Below are positions 2 through 20,387 of a stretch of 64,000 nt of DNA, piece after piece (within the stretch, counting starts at the first letter, position 1; each line of letters begins with the position of its first letter). A program made the translations under genes and the position numbers. The notes beneath the pieces are model-generated. The model worked only from the letters and a program-made list of their open reading frames with translations, was not told the origin of the DNA and did no database searches. The DNA is from Liolophura sinensis. Lineage: Eukaryota > Mollusca > Polyplacophora > Chitonida > Chitonidae. Where the stretch lies: positions 17,619,127 to 17,683,126 of the forward strand of contig NC_088297.1 in the NCBI RefSeq assembly GCF_032854445.1, in the 5' to 3' direction.

Positions 2-361
2 GAGGTGTATTACCGCAGGTATCTGGAGGAAATGGAGATGGAGCCGAGGTATTTCCGCGGAGTACCCCTCAGTACGCTGGACACGGTGGAAAGCCAGTTT
101 CAAGTGAACATTCAAGTCTACCAGCTCATCCCCATGGATAGGTCGTACTCAGCACAACTCATTCACCGTAGTGCCGAGCGCTATTCTCCCCCTACCCTGC
201 GGTTAAACCTGTACCAGCGGCATTTCAGCTATATCAAAGACATGGGGCGTTATGCTCGATCTTTCACCTGCCAGGTGTGCCAGAAGAGTTTTCGGACACT
301 GTGGGAGTTACGACGGCACGGTCAAACGTGCACCGACGCCATTCGACGACCACCTATTTAG
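2..361 (+). pseudogene. Protein-primed DNA polymerase B, N-terminal fragment (Polinton/adintovirus-like)
   Basis: The frame is open from the left window edge, so the true start lies outside. The translation has the features I associate with the N-terminal region of the PolB of Polinton and adintovirus-type elements: a block around LDTVESQFQVNIQVYQL, then LNLYQRHFSYIKDMGRYARS, then a single zinc-finger-like motif CQVCQ...HGQTC (C-x2-C-x12-H-x3-C) near residues 89-109. In intact family members this finger precedes the exonuclease and polymerase domains. Here the frame stops about ten residues later, and from about 349 the DNA matches the 3' end of the other PolB copy (8712-8533, minus strand). 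The exonuclease and polymerase domains are absent, so this is an internally deleted remnant. Family assignment is from motif memory; the deletion reading follows from comparing the two copies in this window. Confidence 0.7.
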
Positions 362-510
362 ATCTGTAGAACGGTGCTATGGATACTCTACACACCCTGC
401 TCCTGTGCTCCTGTGCTCCTGTGCTCTTGTGACACTTCCGACGGCCCTTTTCAGGGCCAACCAACTCTTCCCGAAAGAGTACTTTCTCAATCTAAGCACT
501 AAAAAAAAGT
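349..510 (+). repeat. Shared 3' segment of the virus-like element, copy 1
   Basis: From accacctatttagatct through tctaagcactaaaaaaa this segment matches the reverse complement of about 8712-8560. It includes the run ctacacaccc, short ctcctgtg repeats (four here, three variants in the other copy), the histone-type stem-loop and the downstream purine element. The match begins at the PolB stop region, so it represents the 3' untranslated end of that gene. Confidence 0.8.
443..479 (+). terminator. Histone-type mRNA 3' end: stem-loop plus purine-rich downstream element, copy 1
   Basis: GGCCCTTTTCAGGGCC at 443-458 folds into a 6-bp stem with a TTTC tetraloop, identical to the SLBP-binding stem-loop of metazoan replication-dependent histone mRNAs. 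CCGAAAGAG at 471-479 sits where a U7-snRNA-binding histone downstream element belongs, about 12 nt after the stem. It lies about 80 nt after the stop of a PolB remnant; no histone coding sequence is nearby. Confidence 0.8.
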
Positions 511-540
511 GGATAGGTTTTTTTCCACTTCATGTAGATA

Positions 541-1039
541 AGCGTGCGAGAACGAGTTATGTAAGGAGGACTATTTAGCGTGGGCGGATGGTGATGGGAG
601 TGGTTAGGTCATGGGTGATATCACTACGCGTGTCTCAGACAACGTAATGATGCTTGTTTTATTTTTGCATATGTATACTTTTTAATTCAAGCATTAAGTC
701 ATTTGAAAACCTGTAGCTGGAAGGTGGGTTATTCCACATTCTTGTTAACATTTGGCAGTGAAGTGGAAGTACAGATTTATTTTTGTTGTCCCCTATATCA
801 CATATGGTCTTATCGCTACATGTACGACTCAACATTATTCAAGAATTTATGAGACACGCGCATAAATGGTTATTCATTCTTGAATTGCCTTCGTCATTCA
901 AAGGTTAATCAGGAGCTTTTCGGTAATTTGGGCTGCCCTTCCCAAGATGCAGTCATTTTAATCTGCTCTGCTGTGTTTGCCTTATTTGCGCATGGCTGGG
1001 AGTGAAGTCACACTTGTGACGTGTCAGGTGTGTGTCAGG
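541..1039. other. No gene recognised
   Basis: AT-rich sequence with no convincing coding frame, RNA gene or repeat that I recognise. It separates the PolB remnant from a promoter-like repeat. Confidence 0.5.
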
Positions 1040-1130
1040 TAGTGGTGGTGGTGGGTTTTTTCCACGACGGGGTGTGTATACTAGAGTAGAGTGTAGTATA
1101 ATAGAGTATAGTATAGGGGCAGTGGTGGTA
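1040..1130 (+). repeat. Dispersed repeat shared with 10790-10885
   Basis: ggtgggttttttccacgac followed by a tatactagagtagagtgtag-type stretch closely parallels 10790-10885 (ggtgggtgttttccacgcc then tatactagcgtgatatag). The shared sequence ties this area to the virus-like block at 8.5-13 kb. Confidence 0.6.
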
Positions 1131-1158
1131 GTGGGAGTGAAAAAAAGAGGCAAAACGT

Positions 1159-1285
1159 CGGCTTGTAAAGTTGAGTGGGACAGCTCGAAAAGAGCTCTTT
1201 GTCGCCAAAAACGAACCAATGGGTGAGCGGGATTTGCCCCAAAACGGACCAATGGATGGCCCCCAAAACGGACCTATCCGCGCGC
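1159..1285 (+). promoter_or_regulatory. Promoter-like block with two CCAAT boxes and tandem CCCCAAAACGGACC
   Basis: CCAAT occurs at 1216-1220 and 1249-1253, each followed by GG. CCCCAAAACGGACC is repeated in tandem at 1237-1250 and about 1261-1274. GAGCGGGA near 1225 resembles an E2F half-site. cggcttgtaaagttg at 1159 recurs at about 10443. The arrangement suggests a proximal promoter for the exon-like sequences that follow; no transcript evidence is available. Confidence 0.4.
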
Positions 1286-1308
1286 GAGAATGGTTGGAGA
1301 TGGAGATT

Positions 1309-1332
1309 GCTTTTTTTTTTTTTTTTTTTTTT
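1309..1332 (+). repeat. Poly(T) tract
   Basis: A run of 22 T followed by a T-rich stretch that ends in ttttttacag at 1391. It could be the polypyrimidine tract of an intron or a retro-insertion tail read on the opposite strand. Confidence 0.6.
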
Positions 1333-1391
1333 GTTTTGTTTTTCCCTTCATACATTCTCGTTTTGTTTTTACCTATGTGTGTTTTTTACAG

Positions 1392-1488
1392 GGAGATGAC
1401 TAGGGTGGTGCGCGTTATAAACATTGACCAATGTCGGGACTTTCATATTGGCGATACAATCGTCATCACGAGACATATCTCACCGTGA
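1392..1488 (+). CDS. Unrecognised short coding-like exon (a)
   Basis: A strong polypyrimidine tract and tttttacag precede an open stretch reading EMTRVVRVINIDQCRDFHIG and ending in TGA at 1486-1488. I do not recognise the product. CCAAT-type promoter elements lie 110-190 bp upstream. The piece might be an exon of a gene of the virus-like element, or a chance frame. It is listed because splice signal, frame and promoter-like sequence line up. Confidence 0.25.
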
Positions 1489-1747
1489 CACCAAAATAAT
1501 GGACACTTACAGCATGTATTTATTCGTTCATTCGTTGATGTGTTCACTGTTCGAGTTCGAAAAAAATAAATAAAAAAAGTTTTCAGGTTGACGACCCTGG
1601 TCTTTGTGTTGGTTATTGTCTTTAACTGTTGGTGAAGGGATAGTCTATCTATCTATCTATCCATCTATCGTTTTGATTGATGTGGCTAGGGTTCGGTCGG
1701 TGACGGCATTAGAATGACGACGGTGTCTTCCTTTATGTCTTTTCTAG

Positions 1748-2045
1748 CCTGGCGAAGCTCCGTACAACACCGCAATGGAAAGACTGGGTAGCTGTCGTCA
1801 CCGACCTGCAAAGCTACACCAGGGTACTTCGTAGTATGTTTGCGGATGGTAGGGTGAACGAGAGCCGACTGCAGGTGCTGCGAGCGTACACTGAAGACGT
1901 CTGTCAGCATGTCGAGGATTCCCGACCTATTCAAGCGTATTACGTAGAGATTGTTCGTCCCACGTTAATGTACGAAGTGCGACTCCCTCCCAACCACACA
2001 GAGGTCTATCAACGCTCCGTGTTACATACCTGTACATTGCTGTAA
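1748..2045 (+). CDS. Unrecognised coding-like exon (b)
   Basis: tgtcttttctag at 1736-1747 is a good acceptor, and the frame starting with codon ctg at 1749 stays open for 98 codons to TAA at 2043-2045. The composition looks protein-like (LAKLRTTPQWKDWVAVVTDL near the start, PTLMYEVRLPPNHTEVYQRS near the end). No conserved domain is apparent. It lies between exon-like pieces (a) and (c) on the same strand. It could be a fragment of a structural or regulatory gene of the virus-like element; that is conjecture. Confidence 0.3.
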
Positions 2046-2112
2046 ATAATAATACTGTTACCTTACTATGGAATCCATCCCCTGTTTTTGTGTTTTCTTT
2101 TTTTTTATATGG

Positions 2113-2180
2113 ACTGGGTCAGTGTGTCAGTGTGTCAGGCTAGGGCTGGTATCTATCCCGATAGCTCCTATGTATTATGT
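2113..2180 (+). repeat. Dispersed repeat shared with the reverse strand of 7945-8006
   Basis: gggtcagtgtgtcag...ggctagggctggtatctatc...tcctatgtattat matches the reverse complement of about 8006-7945. The motif GGGTCAGTGTGTCAGGCTA also forms the right end of the foldback MITE at 8252-8414, so a transposon terminus is likely involved. Confidence 0.6.
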
Positions 2181-2409
2181 ATGGACGCACCAGCTGGCTG
2201 GAAGAACTGGAATCTCGTACACGTTTCTGGTAGAGTAACTTCCCCTGAAGAAACTGAAGAGGGCGTTCGAACACTGAAACAGCGCCCTCTGCTCGGCGTG
2301 GAAAAAAATTGTGCGGTGGTTTGGATACAGATTTGACCGATACGGTAGTGTATTTCACATTGACGACTGCGCCTTTAATATTACGTTGTTCAAGCGCAAT
2401 GGAATTTAA
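2141..2409 (+). pseudogene. Unrecognised coding-like exon (c), frame-broken
   Basis: An open frame reads through GWKNWNLVHVSGRVTSPEET and GVEKNCAVVWIQI to TGA at 2334-2336. Shifting by one base at about 2325 continues an open frame (RFDRYGSVFHIDDCAF) to TAA at 2407-2409. The 5' part overlaps the dispersed repeat at 2113-2180. Product unknown; the break suggests decay. Confidence 0.2.
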
Positions 2410-2469
2410 CGGTCTATGCGAGTAGATTCAAGAGTTGCGGCACTTACACTGGGCGTCTCTGAGTTGTCT

Positions 2470-2506
2470 GAAAAAAGACTTCCGCCACGAGGTGGCGCTT
2501 TTTTAC
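2470..2506 (+). other. Strong hairpin followed by a T run
   Basis: CGCCAC (2483-2488), loop GAG, GTGGCG (2492-2497) is a perfect 6-bp stem. Flanking AAAAAAG and CTTTTTT can extend the pairing around a small bulge. It lies just downstream of exon-like piece (c). Its function is unclear; it resembles neither the histone stem-loop nor a poly(A) site. Confidence 0.45.
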
Positions 2507-2510
2507 CCTA

Positions 2511-4860
2511 TGTATTCTGTGTCAAGCATTTACATACAAGATTTATCAGAAACTTTTGAATATGGTTGAGGTCTTTCAACCATCAGCTACTGTAACAATT
2601 TTTTGCAATTTAAAAAAACTGAATAACAAGTTCAAGGCAAGGAATGTCCATAAAAGGCTAGATGAATATGATTTAAAAAGTTTTGTTAGCGGATTGTGGT
2701 CTTTTGAATTAGCTTTGCCACAATCACTGCGAATGGATGTAGTGCTGCATGATGGCACCTTCACTCCGATATTATTTCATGGTCACTATTATACAATCAT
2801 GCATCCTTGTGTTTTCTGTCGATGCACACCTGAGGCACTTACAGGGTGTCTCCCAGTGAGTCTGAAAGACAGACCTCAACAAATATGCGCGCAACGATTT
2901 TGATAGCCTGACATATTTATTAGCAGCCTTCCAGTCTCGAGGATCATCTCCACATGTTGAAATGAAACCAACCTTTAATGGCGACCATGCCCTGTATTTG
3001 ACCAATGCCTTACATACTAATTCATACCATTCGATTCTGTTTAAAATTTTACAAAAGTGAACTAGTGAGTTTTGACCAGTCAAGGAGAACGCTAATGATT
3101 AGGAGTATTGATAAGACTACTCGACTCTTACATTGGTTGCATAAACTGCTAGAACTTATGTGGAACTGAGGGCCTCACCATCGACAGCCATTTTGAAATG
3201 TCAAATGATTTGCATATGGGTTTGAATTGTAACCAAGCTCTGGCATTGAAATCCTCCAGAAAACTGTCATATTTTCACTGCTGTCTGCAGGCACAACTTC
3301 AGTCTTCATAATCCAACCCAGAAGGGCGTAAAAAGAACGAGTGGCATCAGCATGGACCTCATGGTGCCATCAGTTTGACGTTCAGAAGTGTGCAGCACAT
3401 TTCTTGAGAGTAATGGAAAGATGAAGTTAAATTTGAAAAAAACATACCAGATGGACTAGGGTGCTGTAAAAGCGACAGATGAGCCGAACAAAGTAGTAAT
3501 AGCATGAAGTCCATCTGATTGTATTAAGACAATCCCTACAAATCTGTTTAGTAGATGTGTACATGAATATTAAGTCCTTGTTTCTGGTCATCAGATTTAT
3601 GTAAGAGGATGTGGACAGACCAGGGTCACAGCCTTCACTATTGATTTTTTCACGACTCAAAGTACAAAGTCCCATTATCACACACATCAGCACCTGGAAT
3701 TATTTATGAATGTATTTATGGACACTGTGTAAGTTACCTGCTCTGAAGTGTGACCCAACAAGTAGTCTTGAACCAGACTGTGCAAGTGGGTGCAGGTGTA
3801 CCTACCTTGAATTTCCGTCCCTAATGATGGATGCAATCAGTTGTGTTGCTACTGTAACAACTCTCTTCTAGGCAACAGAATGGAAAAAACAAAACAAAAC
3901 AGGACATCCATTGAAAGCCACGCCAAGAGATTCACATGCCTACACACAAAAAACATAACTAATAAAAGTTTATCGTTAAATAATGAACTTTCATTTGTAT
4001 TCAGGTGATAGCGAGCTTTCTGATTGGTTATTTTTTTGCATTCCTACCATGATGAACCCCAAAAAATATTTATGCTCTGCCACGTCCAGATTACTTTTAC
4101 TAAAAATATACAGGACCAGGCCCATGTAAAACATGTATTTTCAATCTGTCGTATACAAACTTTTCAAAAATAATTCAAACCACCAGCAATCTTCATACCT
4201 CATTTGTGCAAATAAATTTGATGACCATAAGTACATTCATACAGTTCACACAGCATTATTTTTGTTCATAACAAAAAAATTACATTCAATCCTTAAATAA
4301 CTTCTAAGGTAGACTCCATGTTGGTAAACTCAGGGGAGGTAATTCAGTGGCATCCTGTACATTATTACCAAAATGTGGTCATGTTTTGAGTGAAAGTATA
4401 GTTTTTCGATCAGCTGTATAAAAAGATGGAGACTTCAAAAGCAATTTAATCCTCAAGCTTTGCCTCTTGTATGCATTCCATGATTCTGACTGGATATTGG
4501 TTTTTGTACTGCTCATTATATAGTCTAATTTTATTTAATTTTGTATGTTGCTTCATTTTGGGAACCCTTAGATTTGATTTGCATATTTTTTGCTGTAATA
4601 TGATTATCAAAAACGGTGGAGGGTGGGTCGGGCTAATTCATATTCGCAATATGAGATTGTAACAAAGATTGAAACTCATTATTTGTGTGTCATACTGGGT
4701 ATATAACCAAAAATTTTAAGGAAATTCAGAATACAGTGTGTTTAGTGTCATTATGTATGTATGGTTTAGACAGATTTAGACAGCGCAATATGTTCCATTT
4801 TCTTAAGCTGTTACAGATCTGGTCTACTGTAAAATCATTGACTGTTTTTATTGTTGACAG
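2511..4860. other. No gene recognised (probably 5' flank or first intron of the BTB gene)
   Basis: Short open frames occur on both strands (for example 2556-2903 plus and 3362-3183 minus), but none has a recognisable domain, splice context or start. The region precedes the BTB exon and may contain its untranslated first exon, which I cannot locate. Confidence 0.4.
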
Positions 4861-5008
4861 AAGTCTAGCGGCAACATGGCTGGTATTGACCTCAACTGGT
4901 GTTGAGAATCAGCAGTACCAGAATATTTTGCCGACCAATGTACAGAAACTATGGAATAACAAACAGATGCTGGACATAACATTCCGGGCCGATGGTCAGG
5001 AAGTGCAA
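4861..5008 (+). CDS. BTB/POZ zinc-finger gene, first coding exon (frame-disturbed)
   Basis: The exon lies between acceptor tattgttgacag (ending 4860) and donor caa|gtaagc (5009). It encodes the start of a BTB/POZ domain: NILPTNVQKLWNNKQMLDIT, then FRADGQEVQ, spliced in frame to AHQLVLAAASNDL in the next exon. A well-placed start, aacATGGCTGGTATTGACCTC at 4876, gives MAGIDLNWC and then hits TGA, one base out of frame with the BTB sequence. Either a one-base indel near 4900 separates start from domain, or translation begins in an unseen upstream exon. BTB domains mediate dimerisation and cofactor recruitment in nuclear transcription factors. Confidence 0.65.
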
Positions 5009-5675
5009 GTAAGCTTTTAGAGGCTTTCTAACTTATCGACCAGTGGTATTTAGTAGTAAACCTATAATAGCTTGCTTCACAAAATCACTCCTAGCATTCT
5101 AAACTTTTTATAATACTGCGCCAGTATAATGCATTCTGTATTTGTAATCAAGGTAATTTTTAGTGTTCATAACACTAAGTTTGCTTTGTGAATCATGCGT
5201 TGGTCAGTGGGAATTTTGAAATGGGACGTATTACATCGTTCTAGTGATGTAAACATTTTACTGTATGAGCTGACTATGCAGGTCATAAATAGAACTGTAG
5301 CATGCAACATGTTTGACATTGTGCGGTATAAATCTACAAGTCCTGATTGACTGCATCACCCCTTCTGTGATAGAAACAGCCATTGATATCCCATTGCCAC
5401 ATAAATAATGCGCATGTGAGATCAGCAGTGAGATGATAGGACATGGCCACCTGTTTAATTACAAGATAGGTGTGTTTAAGTTTCACATAAATTTTTGGCT
5501 AATTTCAGACAGGGAACTGTTTTGTTGTACTTCCGCGCCTCCTTTATTCTTTGAGCATTGGTAGTACACGGTAATGTTAACATAAGTCATAACATTGAAC
5601 AGCATAAAATACCAGTCAAATAAATAGATAAGATGTAACATTGATGATTTTTAAGAAGTGTGTTTTCTGTTGCAG
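5009..5675 (+). other. Intron of the BTB zinc-finger gene
   Basis: GTAAGC donor at 5009 and ttctgttgcag acceptor ending at 5675. The intron interrupts the BTB domain between codons for Q and A. No nested element recognised. Confidence 0.7.
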
Positions 5676-5993
5676 GCACATCAGCTGGTTCTGGCAGCGG
5701 CGAGTAACGATCTCTGTGATGCCCTCAGTCAGATCCGGAAAACCACAAAACATGCTGTGCTGGATCTGAACAGATCAGGTATTACTATGGCAGACCTCAA
5801 GGAACTTCTTAACTATCTTTACTGTGGTAAGATGCAGTTAAACCCACAGACGTGTCAGGGTGTAGCCAAGGCAGCCAAAACCCTTCACATCCCTCAGGTG
5901 GTGGCTCTCTGTGCACTTTTCAAAGCCACATTCATGCCAGGAACTCCACTAGCAGACTCTCAGATAGGTGTGACCAGTCAGACTCCATTTTAA
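5676..5993 (+). CDS. BTB/POZ zinc-finger gene, exon 2, part 1 (rest of BTB domain)
   Basis: In frame with exon 1 this reads AHQLVLAAASNDLCDALSQ, ITMADLKELLNYLYCGKMQL and GVAKAAKTLHIPQVVALC. These are the classic second half of a BTB fold (the L-YCG-- strand and the final helices). The frame ends in TAA at 5991-5993. The next reading frame, open from about 5852 onward, carries the rest of the protein, so one extra or missing base lies somewhere between about 5925 and 5990. No plausible intron fits that interval. Confidence 0.7.
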   Translation, partial: AHQLVLAAASNDLCDALSQIRKTTKHAVLDLNRSGITMADLKELLNYLYCGKMQLNPQTCQGVAKAAKTLHIPQVVALCALFKATFMPGTPLADSQIGVTSQTPF

Positions 5994-7609
5994 ATGACAT
6001 GTGGAAAGTAGGGCAGACAAAGGAAGTAGCTACAACACATGCATCAAGTACCAAGTCCAGCCCTAAGCCTGGCCCCAGCTTTGTACCCGCACCGCCGGTC
6101 ATTGACCAGTCCACGGTCACAAGCCTGACAGAAAGTAAGATCTCACCCCCTGTGGATAAAGTGGAGCTATACAGAGAACTGACAAGTCACAAACAGAAGT
6201 GGATGGCTGATGCCAGGCCTCTACCCGTTCCCAACAAGATAGAGCCAGCTGATGAATCTTCCGAGAACTTTGCTGGGGCTAAACCAGGTAAGAATTCCAC
6301 CGCGGTAAAACCTACCCAGGATTTCAAAATGGTAAAAGTTAAAGAAGAGCCTGTTGACGATTTTCCAGACATGTCCCCAGCTGCCAGTGTCACCCAGTCT
6401 AATGAGTCTGCTGGTAAAAGTGGAACAAGTCCCAACATCGTACAACAGGTCACAGACATGAACTCAGTCATTCCAAAGGTAGATCCCAGCTTCTTGGCTG
6501 ACATTGGTGATGTCAGTGACTCAGATTCCATAGGCTTGGGAGGTGACACTGCTGATTTGAGTAACAAGGAGAAGGCCACCACAGTTAATCCGCTACCTTG
6601 CCTTGTTAAGCAGGTCGCTGCATTCGGTGCAGCAGCAACTAAACCGCACACGCCTCCTGTGTACTACAAATATAAGCGAAGGAAGCAAAGGCGAGGAAGA
6701 ACTCACTATGTTAAACCTCAAACCATAGAGCCTGTGGATTCTGAGCCTGTCAAAAAGCAGAAGAGAGATACAGAGCAGACTAATAACCAGTCTGTGAGAA
6801 TTGTACATGCGCCTCTACCAACAGGTGCTACTCTCGTCAAACCATTTGCTGTCACCTCGAATGGCAAGACAACAACAGCAGTAGAGAAGTCTATTGACGT
6901 AAGAAACACAGAAGAGGAGACTCTACCAAAGTACCCCTCCTTTCCTTCTACCAGCGGCGACGCCCAGCTCAAGACCTATGTTCAAGTTGTAAAGCAGCAA
7001 GCTACAACGACCACAGAAGTGAAACAGTCTAAAGATCCTGCCACTCTTATCAGCAAGGGCGTGATCAAAACCACGATACCTGCAGCACCAGCAGCTGCGG
7101 CAGCTATAACTGCTGTCCCGTCAACCTCTGACACAGATCACCAGGGAAGTACTGAAGCTTTGGCGTCGTGCTTTGTACGGGCACGGGGCATAAAAAATTA
7201 CAAAAGTTCGTACAGCACACCGCATTCATTGAGAAATTATGATGCCCCCAACTCAAAATACAGGGATGTTAGCCTGGGAAAAGATGCAATGGACAAAATA
7301 GCAAACAAGGATGGGAAAAAACTGATACTACCATCATCTGTTGTGAGAAATGGTTGCAAAGGGGGATTTCATATCTCCTGTATCCTCTGTCATTTTTTGT
7401 TTAGTTCTGTGGAAAGTTGTGAGAAGCACATTCTTCGTAAACATTTCCCAGGTGAGCTGATCTTTGCAGACACTAAGGAAGGACAAGAAAAAGTCGAGCT
7501 GGAAAAGAACACTCCTGAAGATAAAAAAGTGATGTTTCTCTGCTCTTGTTGCTGGTATGTCACCCACAATGAGAGGTTTTATCCACCTCCACAGATTCTA
7601 CCAACATGA
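5925..7609 (+). CDS. BTB/POZ zinc-finger gene, exon 2, part 2 (linker and first zinc fingers)
   Basis: A long open frame of low complexity (S, T, P, K and E rich) follows the BTB domain. It contains a probable bipartite nuclear localisation signal YKYKRRKQRRGRTHYVKP at about 6667-6717 and VKVKEEPVDDFPD, a sumoylation-like motif. Near the end comes a C2H2 finger CILCHFLFSSVESCEK with histidines at -x12-H-x4-H (about 7379-7444). A second finger begins CSCCWYVTHNER at about 7541 and is cut by a stop at 7607-7609. Removing one T from the TTTT at 7577-7580 would bring the next frame into register. BTB domain, long linker and terminal fingers are typical of a ZBTB-class transcription regulator. Orthology to a named gene is not evident. 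Confidence 0.7.
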
Positions 7610-7838
7610 GGTGCCCATTCTCAAGAACATGATAGAGCCGTACTGTGAGGCTTGCGAGCTGTTACTGAACAATGACACGGACATGGAGGCTCATCAGAAG
7701 CTGCACTGTAATCACTACATTTGTAACACCTGCTACAAACGCTACATTTGCCTTGATGCCCTCCGCCATCATGTCAGGGAGGCACATAACATCCAGGGCA
7801 ATACTGAGCTGTCCATTCGTCAGGTTACGTATGACTGA
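7557..7838 (+). CDS. BTB/POZ zinc-finger gene, exon 2, part 3 (C-terminal C2H2 fingers)
   Basis: The frame continues the broken second finger (IHLHRFYQHE supplies its histidines). Two further C2H2 fingers follow: CEACELLLNNDTDMEAHQKLH and CNTCYKRYICLDALRHHVREAH (C-x2-C-x12-H-x3/4-H). The stop TGA is at 7836-7838. Three one-base breaks in an otherwise conserved gene can mean a young pseudogene or base-calling errors in homopolymers; the neighbouring MFS gene shows no such breaks. Confidence 0.7.
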   Translation: MSPTMRGFIHLHRFYQHEVPILKNMIEPYCEACELLLNNDTDMEAHQKLHCNHYICNTCYKRYICLDALRHHVREAHNIQGNTELSIRQVTYD

Positions 7839-7944
7839 ATAGGAACAGCCAATAAGTGCTCTCAGTCATTTAGGGCTCTCCATCACTTACAATCACATCT
7901 TTTTACATATGTGCATATGTACATATGTTCCGCTAAAAATTTAT

Positions 7945-8006
7945 ATAATACATATAATACATAGGACCCATTCCGATAGATATCAACCCTAGCATGACAC
8001 ACTGAC
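7945..8006 (-). repeat. Dispersed repeat shared with 2113-2180
   Basis: Read on the minus strand: gggtcagtgtgtcatgctag, then ggttgatatctatcggaat and tcctatgtattat. It parallels 2113-2180 and lies just after the BTB gene. Confidence 0.6.
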
Positions 8007-8013
8007 CCATACT

Positions 8014-8160
8014 ATTGGCGATCGTCTCAAGGATGGTAAATGAGTACCCGATTTAAATAACAACAAATCATAATTAATTTTCATGGGATATTGTAAATTA
8101 AGTGAAATAAAGTAATACAATGTGTTTAAATGAATTGTGACATGAGTTTGTATAAAATTA
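8014..8160 (+). repeat. Dispersed repeat, related to 36829-36925 and 37551-37575
   Basis: gtctcaaggatggtaaatga at about 8025 recurs near 37555. aacaacaaatcataattaat through gaattgtgacatgagtt (8059-8150) recurs at 36829-36920. The two parts are adjacent here but about 630 bp apart and in the opposite order at 37 kb. One explanation is a deletion joining an LTR-element leader to an LTR start; that is a guess. Confidence 0.6.
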
Positions 8161-8251
8161 AAAAAGAGACTATGAGACTCACATACCGTGGTGGTTTGAC
8201 TTCTTTCTTTTTTTATTATGAGGACTACCACAACAGCATGCAGGCCAGCTA

Positions 8252-8414
8252 TAGCACACTGACACACTGACCCAGTCACCGCCTGTTACATCGTCATACA
8301 TTGTTGCGTCATACATTGTTACCAGGCCGTCTGCGGTATACCGGCAAGGCACCGCTCGGCAACAATGTATGACGATGTAGCAGGCACGGCAAGTCGGGTC
8401 AGTGTGTCAGGCTA
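8252..8414. mobile_element. Foldback MITE
   Basis: Arms 8252-8307 and 8358-8414 are imperfect inverted repeats of about 56 bp (roughly 85% identical). The outer ends are TAGC-(ca)CTGACACACTGACCC and its complement; the inner arm is acatcgtcatacattgttgc. The loop of about 50 bp contains another gtcatacattgtta and the palindrome cggtataccg. No coding capacity. The same outer motif occurs singly at 2113-2139 and 7992-8008. Confidence 0.65.
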
Positions 8415-8532
8415 TTACGGCTGCCGGCCCGCCGCCCCCCGCTAGGCGTTTTTAACTTTTTAACGTATGTACCACTGCGAATGATAAAACACATGAAAAA
8501 AAATTGTACAATTAAAAAAAATGGGAAGACTG

Positions 8533-8712
8533 TGTCTGGTGTGGGGCTTCTTTCTTTCTTTCTTTTTTTTTAGTGCTTAGATTGAGAAAGTACTCTTTCG
8601 GGAAGAGTTGGTTGGCCCTGAAAAGGGCCGTTGGAAGTGTCACAAGAGCACAAGAGCACAGGAGCCGGGTGTGTAGAGTATCCATAGCACCGTTCTATAG
8701 ATCTAAATAGGT
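8533..8712 (-). repeat. Shared 3' segment of the virus-like element, copy 2
   Basis: On the minus strand this follows the PolB C-terminus directly. It contains ctcctgtgctcttgtgctct repeats, the histone stem-loop, the purine element, tctcaatctaagcactaaaa, then a GA-rich run and gccccacaccagacacagtc. The last part also occurs downstream of the RING gene (about 11133-11234), so similarity extends about 95 bp beyond the stem-loop. Confidence 0.8.
8594..8629 (-). terminator. Histone-type mRNA 3' end, copy 2 (after PolB)
   Basis: The stem-loop GGCCCTTTTCAGGGCC occupies 8629-8614 on the minus strand, preceded by CCAAC as in canonical histone mRNAs. CCGAAAGAG occupies 8602-8594. It lies about 65 nt after the PolB stop codon at 8697-8695. 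Confidence 0.82.
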
Positions 8713-9334
8713 GGTGCTCACCCCGTCGGGGAGCACTTTTCGCTTCCCGTAAAAGTATGTGAATGCGTCTTTGTGTTGGGTATACGAGTACATCGTATTG
8801 CCCCGCATCCGCATTCCCCGATTCACACCACTCGCGCATTGGTGGTCGCGCAACCCAGAGAGGTACAGAGCCTTGTCCACACCTCGTGCGCTCACACCTT
8901 TGCAGGAGAGTTTGTCTTGTTGGATGTGTTGGATGCCCCGTCGTAACAATAATAAGTCTTGGAACACAAACTGACGATGGCATCACCGGTCCACTCGACT
9001 TTGAAAAGCCCCGGTGTGCGCTTATCGTGGTCGTAATGGTCGCGACGGGGTAACCACGCATCCCGCTCGGTCTCGTACAGGGCTCGCAGCTCGGGTTTGA
9101 CGAGGGATTCCCAGTCTGGATCAGACCAAGCCATGTACGCAGAGTCTGTGTCCATCTCACAGTACTGCCAATCCGCCTTGTCGAAAAAACGAGCCATGAA
9201 ATCGTAATAAAATTCCAGCATGCGGAGTTTGGCATACTGGTAGACCATGCACCCTATTTGCTAGGGGAGATTGTAGCGAATGGTCTTCTTGCTACTCGTC
9301 ACTTCAAAAGTGGTCTCGTCGATGGGGTCGACGG
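8695..9334 (-). pseudogene. Protein-primed DNA polymerase B, C-terminal fragment (Polinton/adintovirus-like)
   Basis: The minus-strand translation contains the PolB palm core: VYQYAKLRMLEFYYDFM, then the catalytic motif C block YCEMDTDSAYMAWSD (two aspartates in DTDS). GLFKVEWTGDAIVSLCSKTY follows, and after a one-base frame change near 8940 come KLSCKGVSARG and the C-terminal FTYFYGKRKVLPDG. The carboxy end and stop look natural. An in-frame TAG sits at 9263-9261, in the stretch that normally reads NLPxQIG. Only about 210 residues survive; the exonuclease and motif A/B regions are missing because the fragment begins where a dispersed repeat (9335-9425) ends. The enzyme class replicates linear virus-like DNA from a protein primer. 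It is not functional here. Confidence 0.78.
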
Positions 9335-9425
9335 ATGCAGGGTAGGCTTGTCAGTATTAGACATATATACATAGCAGGTGTGTTGAACATAACCGCGGCT
9401 GGGAACAATGTAGCGTCACGCGCAC
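9335..9425 (-). repeat. Promoter-like dispersed repeat, copy 1
   Basis: On the minus strand: gcgcgtgacgctacattgtt, then ggttatgttcaa, cctgctatgtatatatgtct and aatactgacaagcctaccctgca. It matches 10574-10698 and 12878-12976 and directly abuts the PolB fragment. Confidence 0.75.
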
Positions 9426-9922
9426 GGCTCAGCCAGGCCGACGATCATGATCTATGATGTCCAATAATTATTGTTTTATTCCAATTTACATAGAAAAGGC
9501 ACCAAATCCAGAGAATAGGACCACAGAAACGTGTAAGGCAACATATAGGTAAAAAATAAGCTGATTGAAAGCTGGTTGAACGATTACCTGGAACTGTTGA
9601 CATTTCTTAATGGATATTAATACACTCGCTCATAACTACATACATGTATATACTGAATACGTTGTACGTGCAGGCCTGTGTACATGTACATGATTTATAT
9701 ATGTACATTTATTGTGCGCATGATTTTTTTGGAAACGGACCCTGAGATGACCAACGCTGAATGCGGAAAGCAACTACTCATACATGCACATGATTCAACA
9801 TTTGGACTTCAAAGACTATCCCCAAAGTCAACATACTCGTCGTTATTTAAAACGAAATAGTATGCAAAGAAACGAAAATGAAAAAAACTCAATGCCTACC
9901 AACAAAAATGAAAAATGTCAAC
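9426..9922. other. No gene recognised
   Basis: AT-rich spacer with tacatgtaca-type short repeats around 9645-9720. No coding or RNA gene supported. Confidence 0.5.
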
Positions 9923-10005
9923 TGGCCGGTATGGGGCTCGAACCCGTGACATTCGCGTTATTAGCCCATTCGCGTCATTCGCTCTGCCGATTGAGCCAAC
10001 CGGCC
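9923..10005 (-). tRNA. tRNA-like gene with a repeat-expanded anticodon arm (probably non-functional)
   Basis: On the minus strand the ends GGCCGGT (10005-9999) and ACCGGCC (9930-9924) form a perfect 7-bp acceptor stem, followed by A at 9923. TGGCTCAATCGGCAGAGCG fits the A box and D arm (GCTC/GAGC), and GGGTTCGAGCCC fits the B box and T loop. Where a 17-nt anticodon arm and short variable loop belong there are about 33 nt made of near-repeats GCGAATGAC, GCGAATGGG, CTAATAAC and GCGAATGTC. No standard 5-bp anticodon stem forms, so no amino acid can be assigned. Total length is 83 nt. It could be a class II-like relic, an intron-containing tRNA or a SINE head. Confidence 0.5.
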
Positions 10006-10500
10006 ATTCGTGCAATACGGTGGCTTTTCAATCTCCATAATCAAGCAGCGCCTGCTGTATACGTATATCAGGCAGCGGAAGATCAGGTCTCCGTGTTTTA
10101 AAAAGATAATTTTTAAATAAATTAAAATAAAAATTGATTCTCATCAAGAATGTTATTTATTTTCTGGGCCGTTTATTCGCGTACCTCTAGGCTGGAATAT
10201 TCGACCTTATAGACGGGTTGATTATATGAAAGAACCCACAAAGAACTAACAAAACCAGTAGAGCATTATAATCCTGGTTTATTGTCCGTGTAGACAAGGC
10301 GAGTGTATACATCAGACTGATACGGAGTTTGTTTGACTTCAGTTTTGGATCCACTGTCTATACATCAAAACCTGAGTCTTAGAAAAGATAGCGCTGTAGA
10401 GTGACGTACCACCGAGGTGATCGACCTTTTATAGGACAACCCCGGCTTGTAAAGTTGGAGGGAAACGCAGGGCGCGGGCCTAAGTGAGAGCACTAAAAGT

Positions 10501-10698
10501 GATGTATCATTGGCGGGCATGTTTTCATATATCCATCTCGGCTACATTTTCCCGCGCGTTTCATACAGAATCCTCCGCCTGGCAGAGCTGTGCGCGTGAC
10601 GCTACATTGTTGTCAGCCGGGGTTGTGTTCACCTCGCCTGCTATGTATATATGTAATATATGTATATATGTCTAATACTGACAACCCTACCCTGCACC
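10501..10698 (+). repeat. Promoter-like dispersed repeat, copy 2 (CCAAT, E2F-like and TATA-like elements)
   Basis: Shares gtttcatacagaatc, ggcagagctgtgcgcgtgac, gctacattgttgtcagccgg and gcctgctatgtatatat with 12801-12976, and the later part with 9425-9335. ATTGG at about 10509 (inverted CCAAT) and TTTTCCCGCGCG at 10547-10558 suggest cell-cycle promoter elements. Confidence 0.7.
10547..10558 (+). promoter_or_regulatory. E2F-like site
   Basis: TTTTCCCGCGCG contains a full TTTSSCGC E2F consensus. The homologous position in the third copy reads TTTTCTCCCGCCCG (12832-12845), a weaker match. Binding is predicted only from the motif. Confidence 0.45.
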
Positions 10699-10751
10699 GG
10701 CTGCACCGACTGACCTGCCTGCCTACCTCCCACCAGCCTGCATTGGAAATA

Positions 10752-11090
10752 CATAAGTAACAGCAATACGTTATACACACACAAGAAATTTTGGTGGGTG
10801 TTTTCCACGCCGCGGGATGTATGTGTATATACTAGCGTGATATAGCGTGTAGTAGACTAGAGTACAGTATAACAGTATATGGAATATAGATATAGATAGA
10901 TAAATAGAGAAAACAGTGGTTTGTTTGTTTCAGGCTGGGTATAAATTAGGCAGAGTTTTAAGTAACACCAATACATTACGTAAATACACAAGACAAGGGG
11001 ATGTAGATATAGATAGATAAATAGAGAAAACAGTGGTTTGTTTGTTTCAGGCGGGTATGAATTAGGCAGAGTTTTAGGTGGAGTAGAAGG
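10752..11090 (+). repeat. Two-unit tandem duplication with shared promoter-like start
   Basis: taagtaacagcaatac...gatatagatagataaatag...aaacagtggtttgtttgttt...gcagagtttt occurs at about 10752-10958 and again, shortened, at about 10959-11075. The first unit also contains the stretch shared with 1040-1130. Confidence 0.65.
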
Positions 11091-11132
11091 TTAGGAAGAC
11101 TTTGAGGATTTGGGATTAAAAAAATAAAAAGG

Positions 11133-11234
11133 GAGACTGTGTCTGGTGTGGGGCTTCTTTTTTCTTTTCTTTTTTTAGTGCTTAGATTGAGAAAGTACTC
11201 TTTCGGGGAGAGTTGGGTGGCCCTGAAAAGGGCC
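11133..11234 (-). repeat. Shared 3' segment of the virus-like element, copy 3
   Basis: From the stem-loop through tctcaatctaagcactaaaa and a GA-rich run to gccccacaccagacacagtc this matches copy 2 (8533-8629). Unlike copies 1 and 2 it follows the RING gene rather than PolB; upstream of the stem-loop similarity stops within a few bases. Confidence 0.78.
11198..11234 (-). terminator. Histone-type mRNA 3' end, copy 3 (after RING gene)
   Basis: GGCCCTTTTCAGGGCC occupies 11234-11219 on the minus strand, preceded by CCAAC and followed by ACCCA as in canonical histone mRNAs. CCGAAAGAG lies at 11206-11198. It is about 120 nt after the RING-gene stop. Confidence 0.82.
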
Positions 11235-11256
11235 GTTGGACAGTGCTGCTGTTTTC

Positions 11257-11360
11257 TTTCTTTTTTTTTTCTTTTTTTTAAACAGCCATTTTTTTCTTTT
11301 TTTAAACAGCCATTTTTTTCTTTTTTTCTTTTTTTAAACAGCCATTTTTTTTTTTTAAAC
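11257..11360 (-). repeat. A-rich minisatellite in the RING gene 3' UTR
   Basis: On the minus strand the unit aatggctgtttaaaaaaag with variable A/G runs is repeated three to four times between the RING stop codon and the histone-type stem-loop. Confidence 0.65.
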
Positions 11361-12668
11361 AACAAATACGAATAAAAAACGATTAAAACAAGACTGACAA
11401 ACAATTAAAAAAAAGAGAGGAATAATACGTAAAATGTACAAATTACAAAATGGGCACCGCTGGGGTGCGAGACGACGAGCACAGGTAAGGCAGATCGCTG
11501 CATGCCCACAGGGTAAGAGACACGCATCGGACACTCTTACATAACAAATCCGACACTCACGTGTCGGAAAACCGTCGGATGTGTGTCTCCTCCTCCTCCC
11601 CTGTGGGGAGGCAGCAAGTGCCTCACCTGCACCGCTCTCAGGTGATGGTGGGTTGGTTGGTGGTGGGTCGGCTGTTGTTGATGACGCTGGTGCTGGTGCT
11701 GGTGTGGGTGGTGCGGTTGGTGGTGGTGGTGGTGGGATCGACCCCGGAGCTGGCGTCAATGGTATCGCTCCCACCGCCGAGGGGATTAAAAACCACTGCA
11801 GAGGAGGGTCGACTCGCAATCGAGCCTCAGTGTGGCGAACTAAGGCTCGCCTATCCTCTAGGCTGATATAATTTTGGGAATTGACAGGCCTCACCTCCCC
11901 CGCTTGCTCGACTGGTATCTGTGGCTGTGGAGCTGTCGCTGTTGGTTCTTCAACCCCACGGCGGGTGTCACCACCCCGAGGCTGGGGTGGGACGTGAGCT
12001 CGGGGCCGACCCCGACGAGCGGATAGCCAGCCAGGTGGTGGTGGAGTTGGTGTTACTTCCATCAACCGCTCACTCTCGCCGTGGTCTGGATTTGGACTCC
12101 CACGTAGTCGTTATTCATCCTCCCATTCGGTTATATCGTCCAGGTCAAGCCGCCGGGGTAGCCGCCGCCCGACGCCTCGCCCCCGGGAACTCCTCGGTCT
12201 GAAGAACCGATTAATATTCGGTTGGGTTAAACGCCCCTCCCGGACGAGGGTTATTAATTCGGCTAATCTACCTCGCCCACGCCCGCCCTGGGTGTTTGGT
12301 GATGGTGGTTCGGTGGTGGTGGTGCTGGGAGATGTCACCATAACTCCCTCCCTCACTCGACCGCACCCGGCGCAGGTGCAGGGCTCAGCTCGTCTTCCCC
12401 GGTTGGGGTTCAATTCCAGCTGGGGCTGTTGCTCGGGTCGTTCTGTATTTTCCAGCTGGTGGTGTTGTTGTTCGGTTGTCGGTTCGACATTTTGGGTAGT
12501 AGGTTGTTGTTGCTGTTCTGGTGACTCTGGTGACTCTGGTATGACGATTGTTGGGTCGGACGGGGGAGACCAAACCCAAGCTTCTTCGTCGTCACTATCC
12601 CATGGTGATTCCTCACTCTCTGAGGTTGTGGCCCACTCATCGTCGAGATCTCCCAAAAAAAGAGCCAT
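11355..12668 (-). pseudogene. Proline-rich RING-finger protein with acidic N-terminus, interrupted by one in-frame TAA
   Basis: One minus-strand frame runs from ATG at 12668 to the stop at 11355, broken only by TAA at 12113-12111. The N-terminal half is acidic (MALFLGDLDDEWATTSESEE and WDSDDEEAWVW), then Q/P rich, with a CTCAGCG cysteine cluster and an RG-rich basic stretch. After the TAA the same frame continues without a break into MEVTPTPPPPGWLSARRGRP, a long Pro/Ala linker and a C-terminal RING: CRIC...LPCGHAAICLTC...RCPFC (C3HC4, IAP/MIB style). RING domains of this type are E3 ubiquitin ligases. A TATA box lies upstream and a histone-type 3' end downstream. The layout recalls virus-encoded RING regulators, but I cannot name a homologue. 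The TAA could be a mutation, a read error, a boundary between two proteins, or read-through. Confidence 0.65.
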
Positions 12669-12800: not shown

Positions 12801-12976
12801 ATTGGATGATGAGTGCGAGCGGGCTTTTATGTTTTCTCCCGCCCGTTTCATACAGAATCATCAGCCCGGCAGAGCTGTGCGCGTGACGCTACATTGTTGT
12901 CAGCCGGGGTTGTGTTCAACTCGCCTGCTATGTATATATCTTATATATATGCAATATGTCTAATACTGCATCGGCT
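12801..12976 (+). repeat. Promoter-like dispersed repeat, copy 3
   Basis: Starts with ATTGG (inverted CCAAT, 12801), then gagcgggcttttatgttttc, E2F-like TTTTCTCCCGCCCG and gtttcatacagaatcatcag, and ends gcaatatgtctaatactgca. It closely matches 10501-10698. With copy 2 it brackets the RING gene as direct repeats. Confidence 0.7.
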
Positions 12977-13438: not shown

Positions 13439-13513
13439 TATTTGAAGTTAAAAACAAGTGAGAAGCGATTGCTTAATTTTAACGGTGAATGATTCAGTGG
13501 CTAAATATTTACA

Positions 13514-14837
13514 ATGGGAGATTTTGATCCTAAACAGTTTGTTAATGCGCCCGATCAGGATGTTTTTGAGAGTTTAAAGAAGGAAGACTTGGTTAAGTTA
13601 GGGACATTTTTAGGTTTGTCCGTAAAGTCTTCATGGAGGAAAAGAGATATGCAGTATACTTTGTTGAAAAATTTAGTGGACATAGGGAAGTTTGATAGTT
13701 CTGCATTATCTGATTATGAGTTCGAGGGTCAGTCTGATGCCGAGCTTAAGTTTAAACAGTTTGAGTTAGAAAAGTTGAGATTGGAGAAAGAGGAAAGGGA
13801 AAGAGAGAAAGAGAGGGAATATGAGGAAAAAAGAGAAAGAGAGGGAACATGAGTTACAGTTAGAGAAGTTGAAAATGCAGAGAGAGGAGAGAGAGAGGCA
13901 AGAAAGAGAGAGGGAAAGAGAATTGGAGTTCGAAATGAAAAAGTTAGAGGTAGAGAGAGGTGAGAAACCGGGTCCTTCCGGTAGACAGGATTCAGGATTT
14001 GATGTGACCAAATACATTCGGTTAGTTCCATCCTTTCAGGAAAAAGAGGTGGATAAGTATTTTCTGCATTTTGAGAAAATTGCAAATAGTTTGAAGTGGC
14101 CTAAAGAGGTCTGGACTATGTTATTACAGAGTGTGCTAATTGGAAAGGCTAGGGAAATTTACACTCAGTTAAGTGTAGAGAATGCTTCCAATTATGACTA
14201 TGTGAAAGAGGTAATTTTGAAGGGTTATGAATTGGTGCCTGAAGCTTACCGCCAGAAATTTCGTAACTATGAAAAAGGTAGAGATCAGACATACGTTGAG
14301 TTCGGTCGAGCTAAGGAGCAGTTGTTCGATCGCTGGTGTACAGCCAAGAAAATAGGCAAGGATTTTGAAAGTTTGCGTCAGCTTGTGCTGGTAGAAGAGT
14401 TCAAGCGTTGTATTCATAATGATGTAAAGGTGTTTGTTGATGAGCAGAAGGCTAGTACACTTGAAGAGGCAGCCAGTTTAGCTGATGATTATTCCTTGAC
14501 ACATAAGGTTACATACACGGGTAAGCCATTTAATTCATTTATACGTAGAAATACCCAGTCACATGCAACAGGTAGAGGTAGCTCTATACAGAAGAGTTCT
14601 ACACCAGGCTCCAATGGTTCTACAGCTCATGGTTCACGTAGTTCAGATTGGAATGGTAGTCCTCGAAATAGGGTCACTTTTAATTTTTGCAAGCGGGTAG
14701 GTCACGTGATGAGTGAATGTTACAAGTTGAAAAGGATACGGGAAGCTCAGAATGAGCCTAAGCCCACAGGTCTTTGTGTTACAATGCACAAAACATTGCC
14801 GGAAGTTACATCAGCAGTTAAAAGCAGATCTGAGTAA
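13514..14837 (+). pseudogene. gag: Gypsy gag polyprotein, frameshifted
   Basis: ATG at 13514 opens MGDFDPKQFVNAPDQDVFES. A highly charged coiled coil (E/R/K heptads, about 13740-13960) follows, then a retrotransposon-gag capsid-like region (KYIRLVPSFQEKEVDKYFLH, and CIHNDVKVFVDEQK) and a C-terminal zinc knuckle. The frame shifts by one base within 13821-13852, inside a purine run, so this is decay rather than a programmed gag-pol shift. The knuckle reads FNFCKRVGHVMSEC: the first cysteine of C-x2-C-x4-H-x4-C is phenylalanine (TTT for TGT at about 14683). The TAA at 14835-14837 is in the same frame as the following pol ORF. Confidence 0.75.
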
Positions 14838-14843
14838 GCTGAT

Positions 14844-16004
14844 ATGGGATTGGATAAGATTCCCAAATGCTCTATGGATAGCTTCGCTCCGTTTATCAAT
14901 TCTGGTTCAGTGTCGCTTAGAAGCGACATGTCTGGTGCTACCCCTATAAAGATATTAAGGGATACTGGGGCATCTCAGTCTCTGTTGTTGATGAATACTC
15001 TGCCCTTTTCTGAAGAGTCGTACTCTGGGGTTCGTGCCCTTATTAGAGGTGTAGAGTCTAGTGACTTTGTCAGTGTTCCCCTTCATGATATTTATTTGTC
15101 ATCAGATTTGATATCTGGACCTGTCAGGGTAGGCATTAAGCCTTCATTACCTTTTGAGGGTATTCATTTGTTGTTGGGAAATGACTTAGCGCATGATAAA
15201 GTTACTGTTGATCTCTTAATGGTTGATAAGCCTTCTCTGAATTCAGTCACAGAGCCAGTTGAAAGCGAGATAGCGGGTTTATATCCGTCCTGTGTTGTTA
15301 CAAGAGCTATGTCTAGAAAAGTCAGTACGGACCAGGGTAGTACTGTTGATTTGAGCGAGACTTTTCTCAACAACATGTTGGATGGAGATTCTTCCAAATT
15401 AGACAGCCAGCAGGAAGTAGATACTAATTTTGTTAGTGGTGATCAGCCATTTTGTAGGACTGAGTTGATTGCTGAACAACACAGTGATCCAAGTATTTCT
15501 TGCTTGTTTAATGATGCAGCTAAAGATGGTGAGTCTTTACCTGACCCATGCTACTACTATGTCAAGTCTGGCATATTGATGCGGCAGTGGAGGCCTCCCG
15601 ATGTTTCGTTGGAGGATGAATGGGCAGTTAAGCATCAGGTAGTTGTGCCCAAGTCTTATCGTAAAGACATACTGACTATAGCGCATGAAACGCCGTTAGC
15701 AGGTCATTTAGGTGTTAATAAGACCTATCATAAGATTCTCAGTCATTTTTATTGGCCAGGAATAAGGAAAGATGTTACTGAATTTTGCAGGTCTTGTCAT
15801 GCATGTCAGTTAGTGGGGAAACCTAACCAGACAATCCCCAAGGCAGCCTTGAGGCCTATTCCTGCAATTGGTGAGCCATTCAGTAGAATCTTAATAGATT
15901 GTGTTGGTCCGCTACCTAAGACAAAGTCTGGAAATCAGTATATGTTAACTATAATGTGTACTTCAACTCGTTTCCCTGAGGCAATTCCACTAAGGAATAT
16001 TACT
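14844..16004 (+). pseudogene. pol: Gypsy pol, part 1: aspartic protease and N-terminal half of integrase
   Basis: The frame is the same as gag, separated by a single TAA. ILRDTGASQSLLLMN (about 14950) is the retropepsin active site. After a linker the integrase zinc domain appears: AHETPLAGHLGVNKTYHK with the CRSCHACQ pair (HHCC), then the core start RILIDCVGPLPKTKSGNQY with the first catalytic aspartate and TRFPEAIPLRNIT. No RT lies between protease and integrase. At 16005 the sequence turns abruptly into an LTR; the interrupted codons resume in frame after it. Confidence 0.8.
16001..16004 (+). repeat. Target-site duplication TACT (left)
   Basis: TACT at 16001-16004 is repeated at 17028-17031 immediately after the LTR. 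Removing the LTR and one TACT leaves the integrase frame continuous. Confidence 0.8.
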
Positions 16005-17027: not shown

Positions 17028-17031
17028 TACT

Positions 17032-20346: not shown

Positions 20347-20387
20347 GCCTCCTGTACATATCCGAAGCGCTGCGCACTGAACAGAAT

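What the first reader, a model, noticed from the sequence alone, without database searches (positions are those of the whole stretch)
361..12668. Histone-type mRNA 3' ends on virus-like PolB and RING genes
Three copies of GGCCCTTTTCAGGGCC, each followed about 12 nt later by CCGAAAGAG, sit 65-120 nt after the stops of two PolB copies and a RING-finger gene. This is the complete stem-loop plus U7-type downstream element of replication-dependent histone mRNAs, and there is no histone gene in the window. Seen directly: motifs, order, spacing, strand. Known: such ends are processed by SLBP and U7 snRNP, give non-polyadenylated mRNA and restrict expression to S phase. Inferred: a Polinton/adintovirus-like element has taken over this route so that replication genes are expressed when the host replicates DNA. 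I know of no description of this for such elements.
Basis: partly seen in the sequence, partly recalled or inferred. Interest (0 to 1): 0.9.

Follow-up and report, generated by a model that had tools for sequence, protein, structure and literature searches.

The report
Polinton genes with host histone 3' ends
In a chiton genome, a family of virus-like mobile elements carries, behind its DNA polymerase gene and a RING-finger gene, the special mRNA-ending signal that animals otherwise use for histone genes, which suggests that these genes are made into mRNA like histones while the host copies its DNA.

Summary
The three motifs are real. The window is from Liolophura sinensis; all three genes in it are broken. 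Genome-wide the stem-loop occurs exactly 146 times (reversed control 0). In loci I read, it sits behind host H1/H2A/H2B/H3/H4 genes, or behind PolB and RING copies. The element-type module occurs 64 times (control 0): 24 behind PolB, 26 behind RING, 14 neither (9 of these probably host H2B). In the PolB list, 6 of 6 copies with frames over 1,300 aa have it. In a tree of 58 PolB copies it is in 22 of 24 of young clade A, 0 of 10 in clade B, 0 of 23 in clade C; 13 of the 23 have AATAAA 46-73 nt behind the coding end. The 42 nt behind the stem-loop are 86% identical to host H2B. Beside PolB lie capsid and protease genes; the protease gene ends in AATAAA in the one copy read. Most likely a Polinton lineage captured a host core-histone 3' end. 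RNA ends, SLBP/U7 use and S-phase control are untested. My library searches listed no description of it.

The parts
2..361 (+). N-terminal part of PolB (C2H2 finger region), joined by an internal deletion, out of frame, to the PolB 3' UTR; broken
   Evidence: same junction in L141 and L142
443..458 (+). histone-type stem-loop, PolB copy 1
   Evidence: (28.2 bits, below gathering)
471..479 (+). U7-type downstream element CCGAAAGAG
8895..9260 (-). C-terminal palm piece of PolB (MDTDSAY motif); in-frame stop just upstream, frameshift just downstream
8695..8894 (-). rest of the PolB C terminus in another frame, to its stop at 8695-8697
8614..8629 (-). histone-type stem-loop, PolB copy 2
   Evidence: (RF00032, 34.6 bits)
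8593..8601 (-). U7-type downstream element CCGAAAGAG
8514..8592 (-). rest of the shared module (TACTTTCTCAATCTAAGCACT, A-rich run, AAGCCCCACACCAGACACAGTC); the first 21 nt resemble the sequence behind host histone genes
8278..8388 (.). palindrome downstream of the PolB 3' end, also seen in clade-A and clade-B flanks
   Evidence: (DNA fold of 8190-8440, z -6.8)
12111..12668 (-). first part of the RING-gene frame (acidic N terminus), ends at an in-frame TAA
11355..12110 (-). second part of the same frame with C-terminal RING finger (PF13920)
   Evidence: E 9.8e-11
11219..11234 (-). histone-type stem-loop, RING gene
   Evidence: (RF00032, 38.4 bits)
11198..11206 (-). U7-type downstream element CCGAAAGAG
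11121..11197 (-). rest of the shared module behind the RING gene
12834..12948 (-). 115-nt repeat upstream of the RING gene (also at 10547-10661, and inverted at 9361-9445)

Best explanation
A Polinton/Maverick (adintovirus-like) lineage of the chiton Liolophura captured the 3' end of a host core-histone gene (nearest to H2B, H4 and H2A). It carries stem-loop, cleavage context, U7-type element and downstream tail behind its PolB and RING genes, while its protease gene keeps an ordinary poly(A) signal in the copy read. Host SLBP and U7 snRNP most likely cut PolB and RING pre-mRNA a few nt behind the stem-loop, giving non-polyadenylated mRNA handled like histone mRNA and so made mainly in S phase. 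Shown: the module, its placement, its likeness to host genes, its presence in one young PolB clade and absence from the older copies read. Inferred: capture rather than convergence, processing by SLBP/U7, S-phase restriction.
For: Module complete and in sense behind both genes. 146 exact stem-loops genome-wide, control 0. 64 element-type modules, control 0: 24 behind PolB, 26 behind RING, 14 neither. Host H1/H3/H4/H2A/H2B copies have the same stem-loop, similar spacing, a CGAAAGA-like element and a related tail; the element's 42 nt after the stem-loop are 86/83/81% identical to H2B/H4/H2A in L151. 6 of 6 PolB frames over 1,300 aa have the exact stem-loop (one of the six by coordinates only). 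Tree of 58: clade A 22 of 24, B 0 of 10, C 0 of 23. Substitutions in 22 clade-A copies: stem-loop 1/352, UTR before it 36/1430 (Fisher p 0.005), coding 59/4554 (p 0.13, not significant). RING: 18 of 20 copies that I judged element-type have stem-loop plus downstream element (15 exact, 3 with one change). PolB frames uninterrupted to 1378 aa. Protease stop followed by AATAAA 97 nt on, in L132.
Against: No RNA data. The PolB strand has AATAAA 376 nt behind the downstream element in L132. Three of five NCBI RING models join to sequence behind the stem-loop. 13 of 14 PolB-type copies have CCCAC or CCGAC before the stem, whereas 30 of 30 host genes have two A at those places (18 of 30 CCAAC); the 7 PolB-type stem-loops in the loci do not reach the RF00032 cut-off. 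Clade A is young, so near-identity is partly recent descent, and substitution counts are not independent. 10 of 10 clade-B and 23 of 23 clade-C PolB copies lack the module. Host U7 was not identified.
Confidence: 0.7

Rival explanations
1. Facultative use: the stem-loop and the downstream AATAAA both work, and most PolB/RING mRNA is polyadenylated; the histone-type end matters only in some cells, as described for human H2AC18.
For: AATAAA on the PolB strand 376 nt behind the downstream element (L132); three of five NCBI RING models run past the stem-loop; H2AC18 is a precedent (PMC9756948, passages read).
Against: Real histone genes can have downstream AATAAA too, used in a Drosophila SLBP mutant (PMC1924863, passages read); the stem-loop changes less than the UTR before it; 6 of 6 of the longest PolB copies keep it.
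Confidence: 0.2
2. Passenger: a histone 3' fragment was caught by recombination and spread with a successful young element without affecting its mRNA.
For: The module behaves as one block: present in clade A, absent in clade B at the same place; clade A is young; two clade-A copies lost it (L157, L192); stem-loop against coding end is not significantly slower.
Against: It sits in sense within 65-120 nt behind two different genes of the same element; the stem-loop changes less than the UTR before it; the two clade-A copies that lost it have frames of 972 and 1189 aa, whereas 6 of 6 frames over 1,300 aa keep it.
Confidence: 0.12
3. DNA-level role: the inverted module pair and nearby palindrome serve replication or recombination of the element, not mRNA ends.
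For: The module occurs once at each end of the PolB-RING unit in opposite orientation (L135, L136, L149), and a strong palindrome lies behind the PolB module.
Against: Copies align more than 1 kb beyond both modules, so these are not the element's ends; clade-B flanks keep the palindrome without the module; the sequence follows the host histone signal in detail.
Confidence: 0.06
4. Chance match or remnant of a decayed neighbouring histone gene.
For: None found.
Against: 0 of 100 shuffles reach the count, 0 in the genome-wide reversed controls; no histone sequence in the window; recurrence behind PolB and RING on many contigs.
Confidence: 0.01

Closest known systems
Replication-dependent histone mRNA 3' ends (stem-loop plus histone downstream element; SLBP, U7 snRNP)
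   Same: stem, loop, cleavage context, spacing to a CGAAAGA-like element and even the tail beyond it, as in the host's own histone genes
   Different: sits behind viral PolB and RING genes, not histones; processing not shown
Polintons/Mavericks (Polintoviricetes) including adintoviruses
   Same: PolB of the organellar/viral type (PF03175), capsid gene of a family with a double-jelly-roll member, viral-type cysteine protease
   Different: histone-type 3' ends on PolB and RING; none mentioned in the listings seen or passages read
Human H2AC18: overlapping histone and poly(A) 3' signals (PMC9756948, passages read)
   Same: stem-loop plus downstream poly(A) signal on one transcript
   Different: a host histone gene

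Membership tests
Replication-dependent histone 3' end signal | 6-bp stem, 4-nt loop with conserved letters | tested here: met
   two of three window copies pass RF00032. In 18 loci 9 of 9 RING-type stem-loops pass, 0 of 7 PolB-type and 0 of 3 true host H4/H2B/H2A (L151) pass, so the cut-off is a poor negative here
Replication-dependent histone 3' end signal | purine-rich downstream element at fixed short distance | tested here: met
   12 nt behind the stem-loop, similar to host histone genes
Replication-dependent histone 3' end signal | base pairing with the host U7 snRNA | tested here: inconclusive
   RF00066 found nothing and its control rang nowhere; a U7-like pattern gave 3 hits against 6 in the control; one candidate (L228) pairs over 8 bp, but the pattern asked for that
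Replication-dependent histone 3' end signal | intronless transcript | tested here: inconclusive
   PolB frames uninterrupted to 1378 aa; NCBI models splice the RING gene
Replication-dependent histone 3' end signal | non-polyadenylated mRNA bound by SLBP, S-phase expression | not testable with these tools
   no RNA data
Polinton/Maverick (adintovirus-like) | protein-primed PolB | tested here: met
   PF03175 (DNA polymerase type B, organellar and viral), E 3.9e-10 (L132); protein priming itself not tested
Polinton/Maverick (adintovirus-like) | double-jelly-roll major capsid protein | tested here: inconclusive
   L132 gene has 1120 homologs; of the 120 listed, 7 are named F54H12.2-like, most have no name. 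One of 4 homologs scanned (P0144) passes PF21738; the element's own protein passes no family. No fold was predicted
Polinton/Maverick (adintovirus-like) | Ulp1/adenain-type cysteine protease | tested here: met
   matches PDB chain 'Cysteine protease S273R' (an African swine fever virus protein, recalled), E 4.4e-7; no Pfam match
Polinton/Maverick (adintovirus-like) | minor (penton) capsid protein | tested here: inconclusive
   guessed by order and by eye only; nothing above a Pfam cut-off
Polinton/Maverick (adintovirus-like) | retrovirus-like integrase and packaging ATPase | not tested
   not searched
Polinton/Maverick (adintovirus-like) | terminal inverted repeats and target-site duplication | not tested

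The most novel reading that the evidence does not exclude
An animal Polinton/adintovirus lineage took over the host's histone mRNA pathway by capturing a core-histone 3' end and placing it on its PolB and RING genes, not on its capsid/protease strand. This makes these mRNAs poly(A)-free and tied to S phase, and the lineage that gained it is the one that recently multiplied. A second, older PolB lineage (L178) carries a degenerate version and may be a separate capture.
Probability: 0.5. Interest if true: 0.93.

Novelty: new variant of a known kind. Interest (0 to 1): 0.86.

Why it matters
From general knowledge (recalled), the stem-loop/U7 pathway is regarded as reserved for histone genes. A DNA virus-like element that borrows it would have a direct way to make replication genes only when the host nucleus is replicating DNA, and to make mRNA without a poly(A) tail, which poly(A)-selected RNA-seq would under-report. 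It gives a natural, repeated, phylogenetically placed comparison (clade A with, clades B and C without) for asking what the histone 3' end does on a non-histone gene.

Tried and rejected
Virus collections: the stem-loop pattern gave 101 stretches in IMG/VR. In the 45 nt printed behind each, none shows the module; three have a loose purine match, and many look like phage terminators (my reading). PolB (one piece, one alignment) and the capsid protein found no relative there.

Terminal repeat: I first suspected the module to be the element's terminal inverted repeat; copies align far beyond it on both sides, so it is internal.

Deep conservation from RING divergence: RING copies as low as 31% identical share a near-identical module, but their elements are about 95% alike in PolB, so this does not show long conservation. 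I rely on the PolB tree instead.

U7 snRNA: not identified. L227 and L228 are candidates only; the control pattern hit 6 times against 3. H2B census to name the C7 cluster: not answered, so its H2B identity is inferred from gene order as in L151.

Tree: support is low at several deep nodes (204 nt, midpoint root): A 0.46, B 0.35, A plus B 0.18, C 0.80; the place of L178 is uncertain. I had thought L178 clearly H3-like; measured, it is 72% identical to the best H3, 68% to H4 and 62% to clade A, which does not decide.

Rows set aside: of 29 RING matches placed against the stem-loop list, I left the 9 weakest out of the count of 20 as not shown to belong to the element; none of the 9 has a stem-loop. 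In one search I used 35 of 152 PolB matches and 32 of 69 RING matches, the better ones. In one search, L161 (insertion) and three clade-A copies without fetched DNA (C5:13871089, C6:37381947, C7:7112999, all with the exact stem-loop by coordinates) are missing. The tree took 58 of the 71 flanks tried.

Literature: listings seen; passages read in PMC11071308, PMC1924863, PMC9756948. No title or abstract start listed describes histone 3' ends on Polinton or other viral genes. The library lacks most subscription journals and the adintovirus paper.
Full report
Where it is. The window is G000:C3:17619127-17683126 of a 609-Mb genome. The RING-gene model LOC135463435 of Liolophura sinensis reads the window's letters from 'MEVTPTPPPP' and then joins the PolB fragment at about 9.3 kb; its contig length, 27,489,247, equals C3. 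So the host is the chiton Liolophura sinensis.

The observation. Three exact stem-loops with CCGAAAGAG 12 nt behind each are present, Rfam RF00032 scoring 38.4, 34.6 and 28.2 bits. The stem forms in the predicted fold of all three. Behind PolB copy 2 and the RING gene the likeness goes on for about 100 nt; behind PolB copy 1 it stops at the A-rich run. There are 81, 65 and 120 nt between stop and stem-loop. All three genes in the window are broken: copy 1 lacks the middle and end of PolB, copy 2 has a stop and a frameshift, the RING frame has one stop.

Host histones carry the same signal. The exact 16-mer occurs 146 times in the genome, 0 in the reversed control (100 places listed). Of the 30 loci returned, 24 lie in a cluster at C1:57.9-58.0 Mb and carry H3 or H1 genes; five of the other six carry PolB or RING pieces, and one (L126) neither. 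Of 20 further stretches fetched (L132-L151), histones lie in L133, L134, L144 (H3) and L151 (H4, H2B, H2A); PolB and/or RING pieces lie in the others except L145, which has a stem-loop but no downstream element. From the end of the stem-loop to AAGCACT, 42 nt of the element are 86% identical to H2B, 83% to H4, 81% to H2A (one copy each, L151), 52-79% to 17 H3 and 60-74% to 10 H1 copies. The likeness includes the tail beyond the U7-type element and points to capture from a core-histone gene. It was measured on genes chosen for an exact stem-loop.

Census. The 34-nt element-type module (up to 3 mismatches) occurs 64 times, 0 in the reversed control. Protein searches gave 152 PolB and 69 RING matches, both lower bounds by the tool's own note. 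Against 35 PolB and 32 RING copies that I picked from them, 24 modules follow PolB, 26 follow RING and 14 follow neither. Of the 14, three follow PolB deletion derivatives (window copy 1, L142, L141), nine lie at C7:23.24-23.76 Mb, seven of them in steps of about 9-15 kb (probably host H2B, by gene order), and two (C75, C11) are unexplained. Two more PolB copies (L155, L164) have the module with an indel. Of 29 RING matches on the part of the genome where the exact list was complete, 20 looked element-type: 15 with the exact stem-loop (one of them 1248 nt away), 3 with one changed letter and a downstream element (L222-L224), 1 truncated (L225), 1 beside a clade-B PolB without it (L226); the 9 weakest have none. 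Another RING copy beside a clade-B PolB lacks it too (L219).

PolB with and without. I fetched 3' flanks of 60 PolB copies and had 11 more in earlier loci. In the first 40, 9 have the exact stem-loop and 2 one with a single change; in the next 20, none is exact and one (L193) has a 2-nt deletion. A tree of the 58 copies with enough C-terminal sequence gives: clade A, 22 of 24 with the module (L157 and L192 lost it by deletion); clade B, 0 of 10; clade C, 0 of 23, of which 13 have AATAAA 46-73 nt behind the coding end, 2 right at it and 8 none within 330 nt; L178 alone has a degenerate stem-loop, CGAAAGAG and ATCTAAGCA. Clade-B flanks resemble clade A on both sides but lack the block, so it was gained or lost as one unit. 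Node support is low at depth. In the list, 6 of 6 PolB copies with open frames above 1,300 aa have the exact stem-loop. The next longest frame, 1189 aa, belongs to L192, which lost the module; a 972-aa copy (L157) also lost it; an 842-aa copy of another lineage, 44% identical (L194), lacks it.

Selection. In 22 clade-A copies, substitutions against the majority letter are 1/352 in the stem-loop, 4/264 in the spacer, 1/198 in the downstream element, 3/462 in the following 21 nt, 36/1430 in the UTR before the stem-loop, 42/2464 behind the block and 59/4554 in the coding end. Stem-loop against UTR: p 0.005; against coding: p 0.13; stem-loop, downstream element and tail together against both flanks: p 0.0003. 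Copies share ancestry, so these p-values are too small.

The element. Beside PolB in L132, in opposite orientation, lie a gene matching the cysteine protease S273R (E 4.4e-7), a probable major capsid gene (1120 homologs, 7 of 120 listed named F54H12.2-like; one of 4 homologs scanned passes the double jelly-roll family) and two further frames. PolB matches PF03175. In L135, L136 and L149, PolB and RING are transcribed away from each other, with 6.3-6.8 kb between their stem-loops. In L132 the protease stop is followed by AATAAA 97 nt on; the PolB strand has AATAAA 376 nt behind the downstream element. So the histone signal is on the two genes that point away from each other and, in the stretches read, not on the capsid/protease strand. 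Integrase, ATPase and ends were not tested.

Mechanism. Established for histones: SLBP binds the stem-loop, U7 pairs with the downstream element, CPSF-73 probably cuts a few nt behind the stem; the active machinery is present in S phase (PMC1924863, PMC9756948, passages read). The element has the cis-signals in detail. That the host uses them on PolB and RING mRNA, and that expression is thereby tied to S phase, is inference. A poly(A) signal downstream also occurs behind real histone genes and does not decide. The CCCAC/CCGAC flank of 13 of 14 PolB-type copies may weaken SLBP binding; 13 of 13 RING-type copies have CCAAC, the commonest host form.

Novelty. Both parts are known; their combination I saw nowhere in the listings and passages named in Tried and rejected.

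Noticed in passing
L178 (C1:12825632-12826531): A PolB copy 71% identical to the window's has a degenerate stem-loop, CGAAAGAG and ATCTAAGCA behind its end; behind the stem-loop 72% identical to the best H3, 62% to clade A; possibly a second, older capture.
   Followed up: partly
window 2-361; L141; L142: The same internal PolB deletion junction recurs at three loci, each followed by a module (one with changes in L141): a deletion derivative that has multiplied.
   Followed up: partly
window 8278-8388: A long palindrome behind the PolB 3' end, also in clade-A and clade-B flanks, folds strongly as single-stranded DNA (z -6.8); role unknown.
   Followed up: partly
window 12834-12948, 10547-10661, 9361-9445: A 115-nt repeat upstream of the RING gene recurs downstream of it and, inverted, at the PolB copy 2 junction; possibly a shared promoter region.
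   Followed up: no
L226 and L219 (RING 3' ends beside clade-B PolB): These have ACCTTTTCAGGT (L226) or ACCTTTTGAGGT (L219) in place of the stem-loop region; remnant, precursor or chance.
   Followed up: no
C7:23.24-23.76 Mb; L151: Probable tandem histone repeats (H4-H2B-H2A order) whose putative H2B 3' ends differ from the element module by only 2-3 of 34 letters.
   Followed up: partly
L151: True host H4, H2B and H2A stem-loops do not reach the Rfam RF00032 gathering score although RING-type element copies do.
   Followed up: yes
LOC135463435 and other RING models (P0122-P0126): Automatic gene models join RING-gene parts to PolB debris or to sequence behind the stem-loop.
   Followed up: partly
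C75:4727-4760 and C11:26117713-26117746: Two element-type modules that follow neither PolB nor RING in my lists; DNA not read.
   Followed up: no
window 9923-10005: tRNA-like sequence, possibly a SINE, inside the element debris.
   Followed up: no
window 13505-18355, 19104-23317, 52114-52770: Open frames that by eye look like a Ty3/gypsy-type element, a LINE-type element and a Tc1/mariner-type transposase (recalled resemblance, no family search).
   Followed up: no
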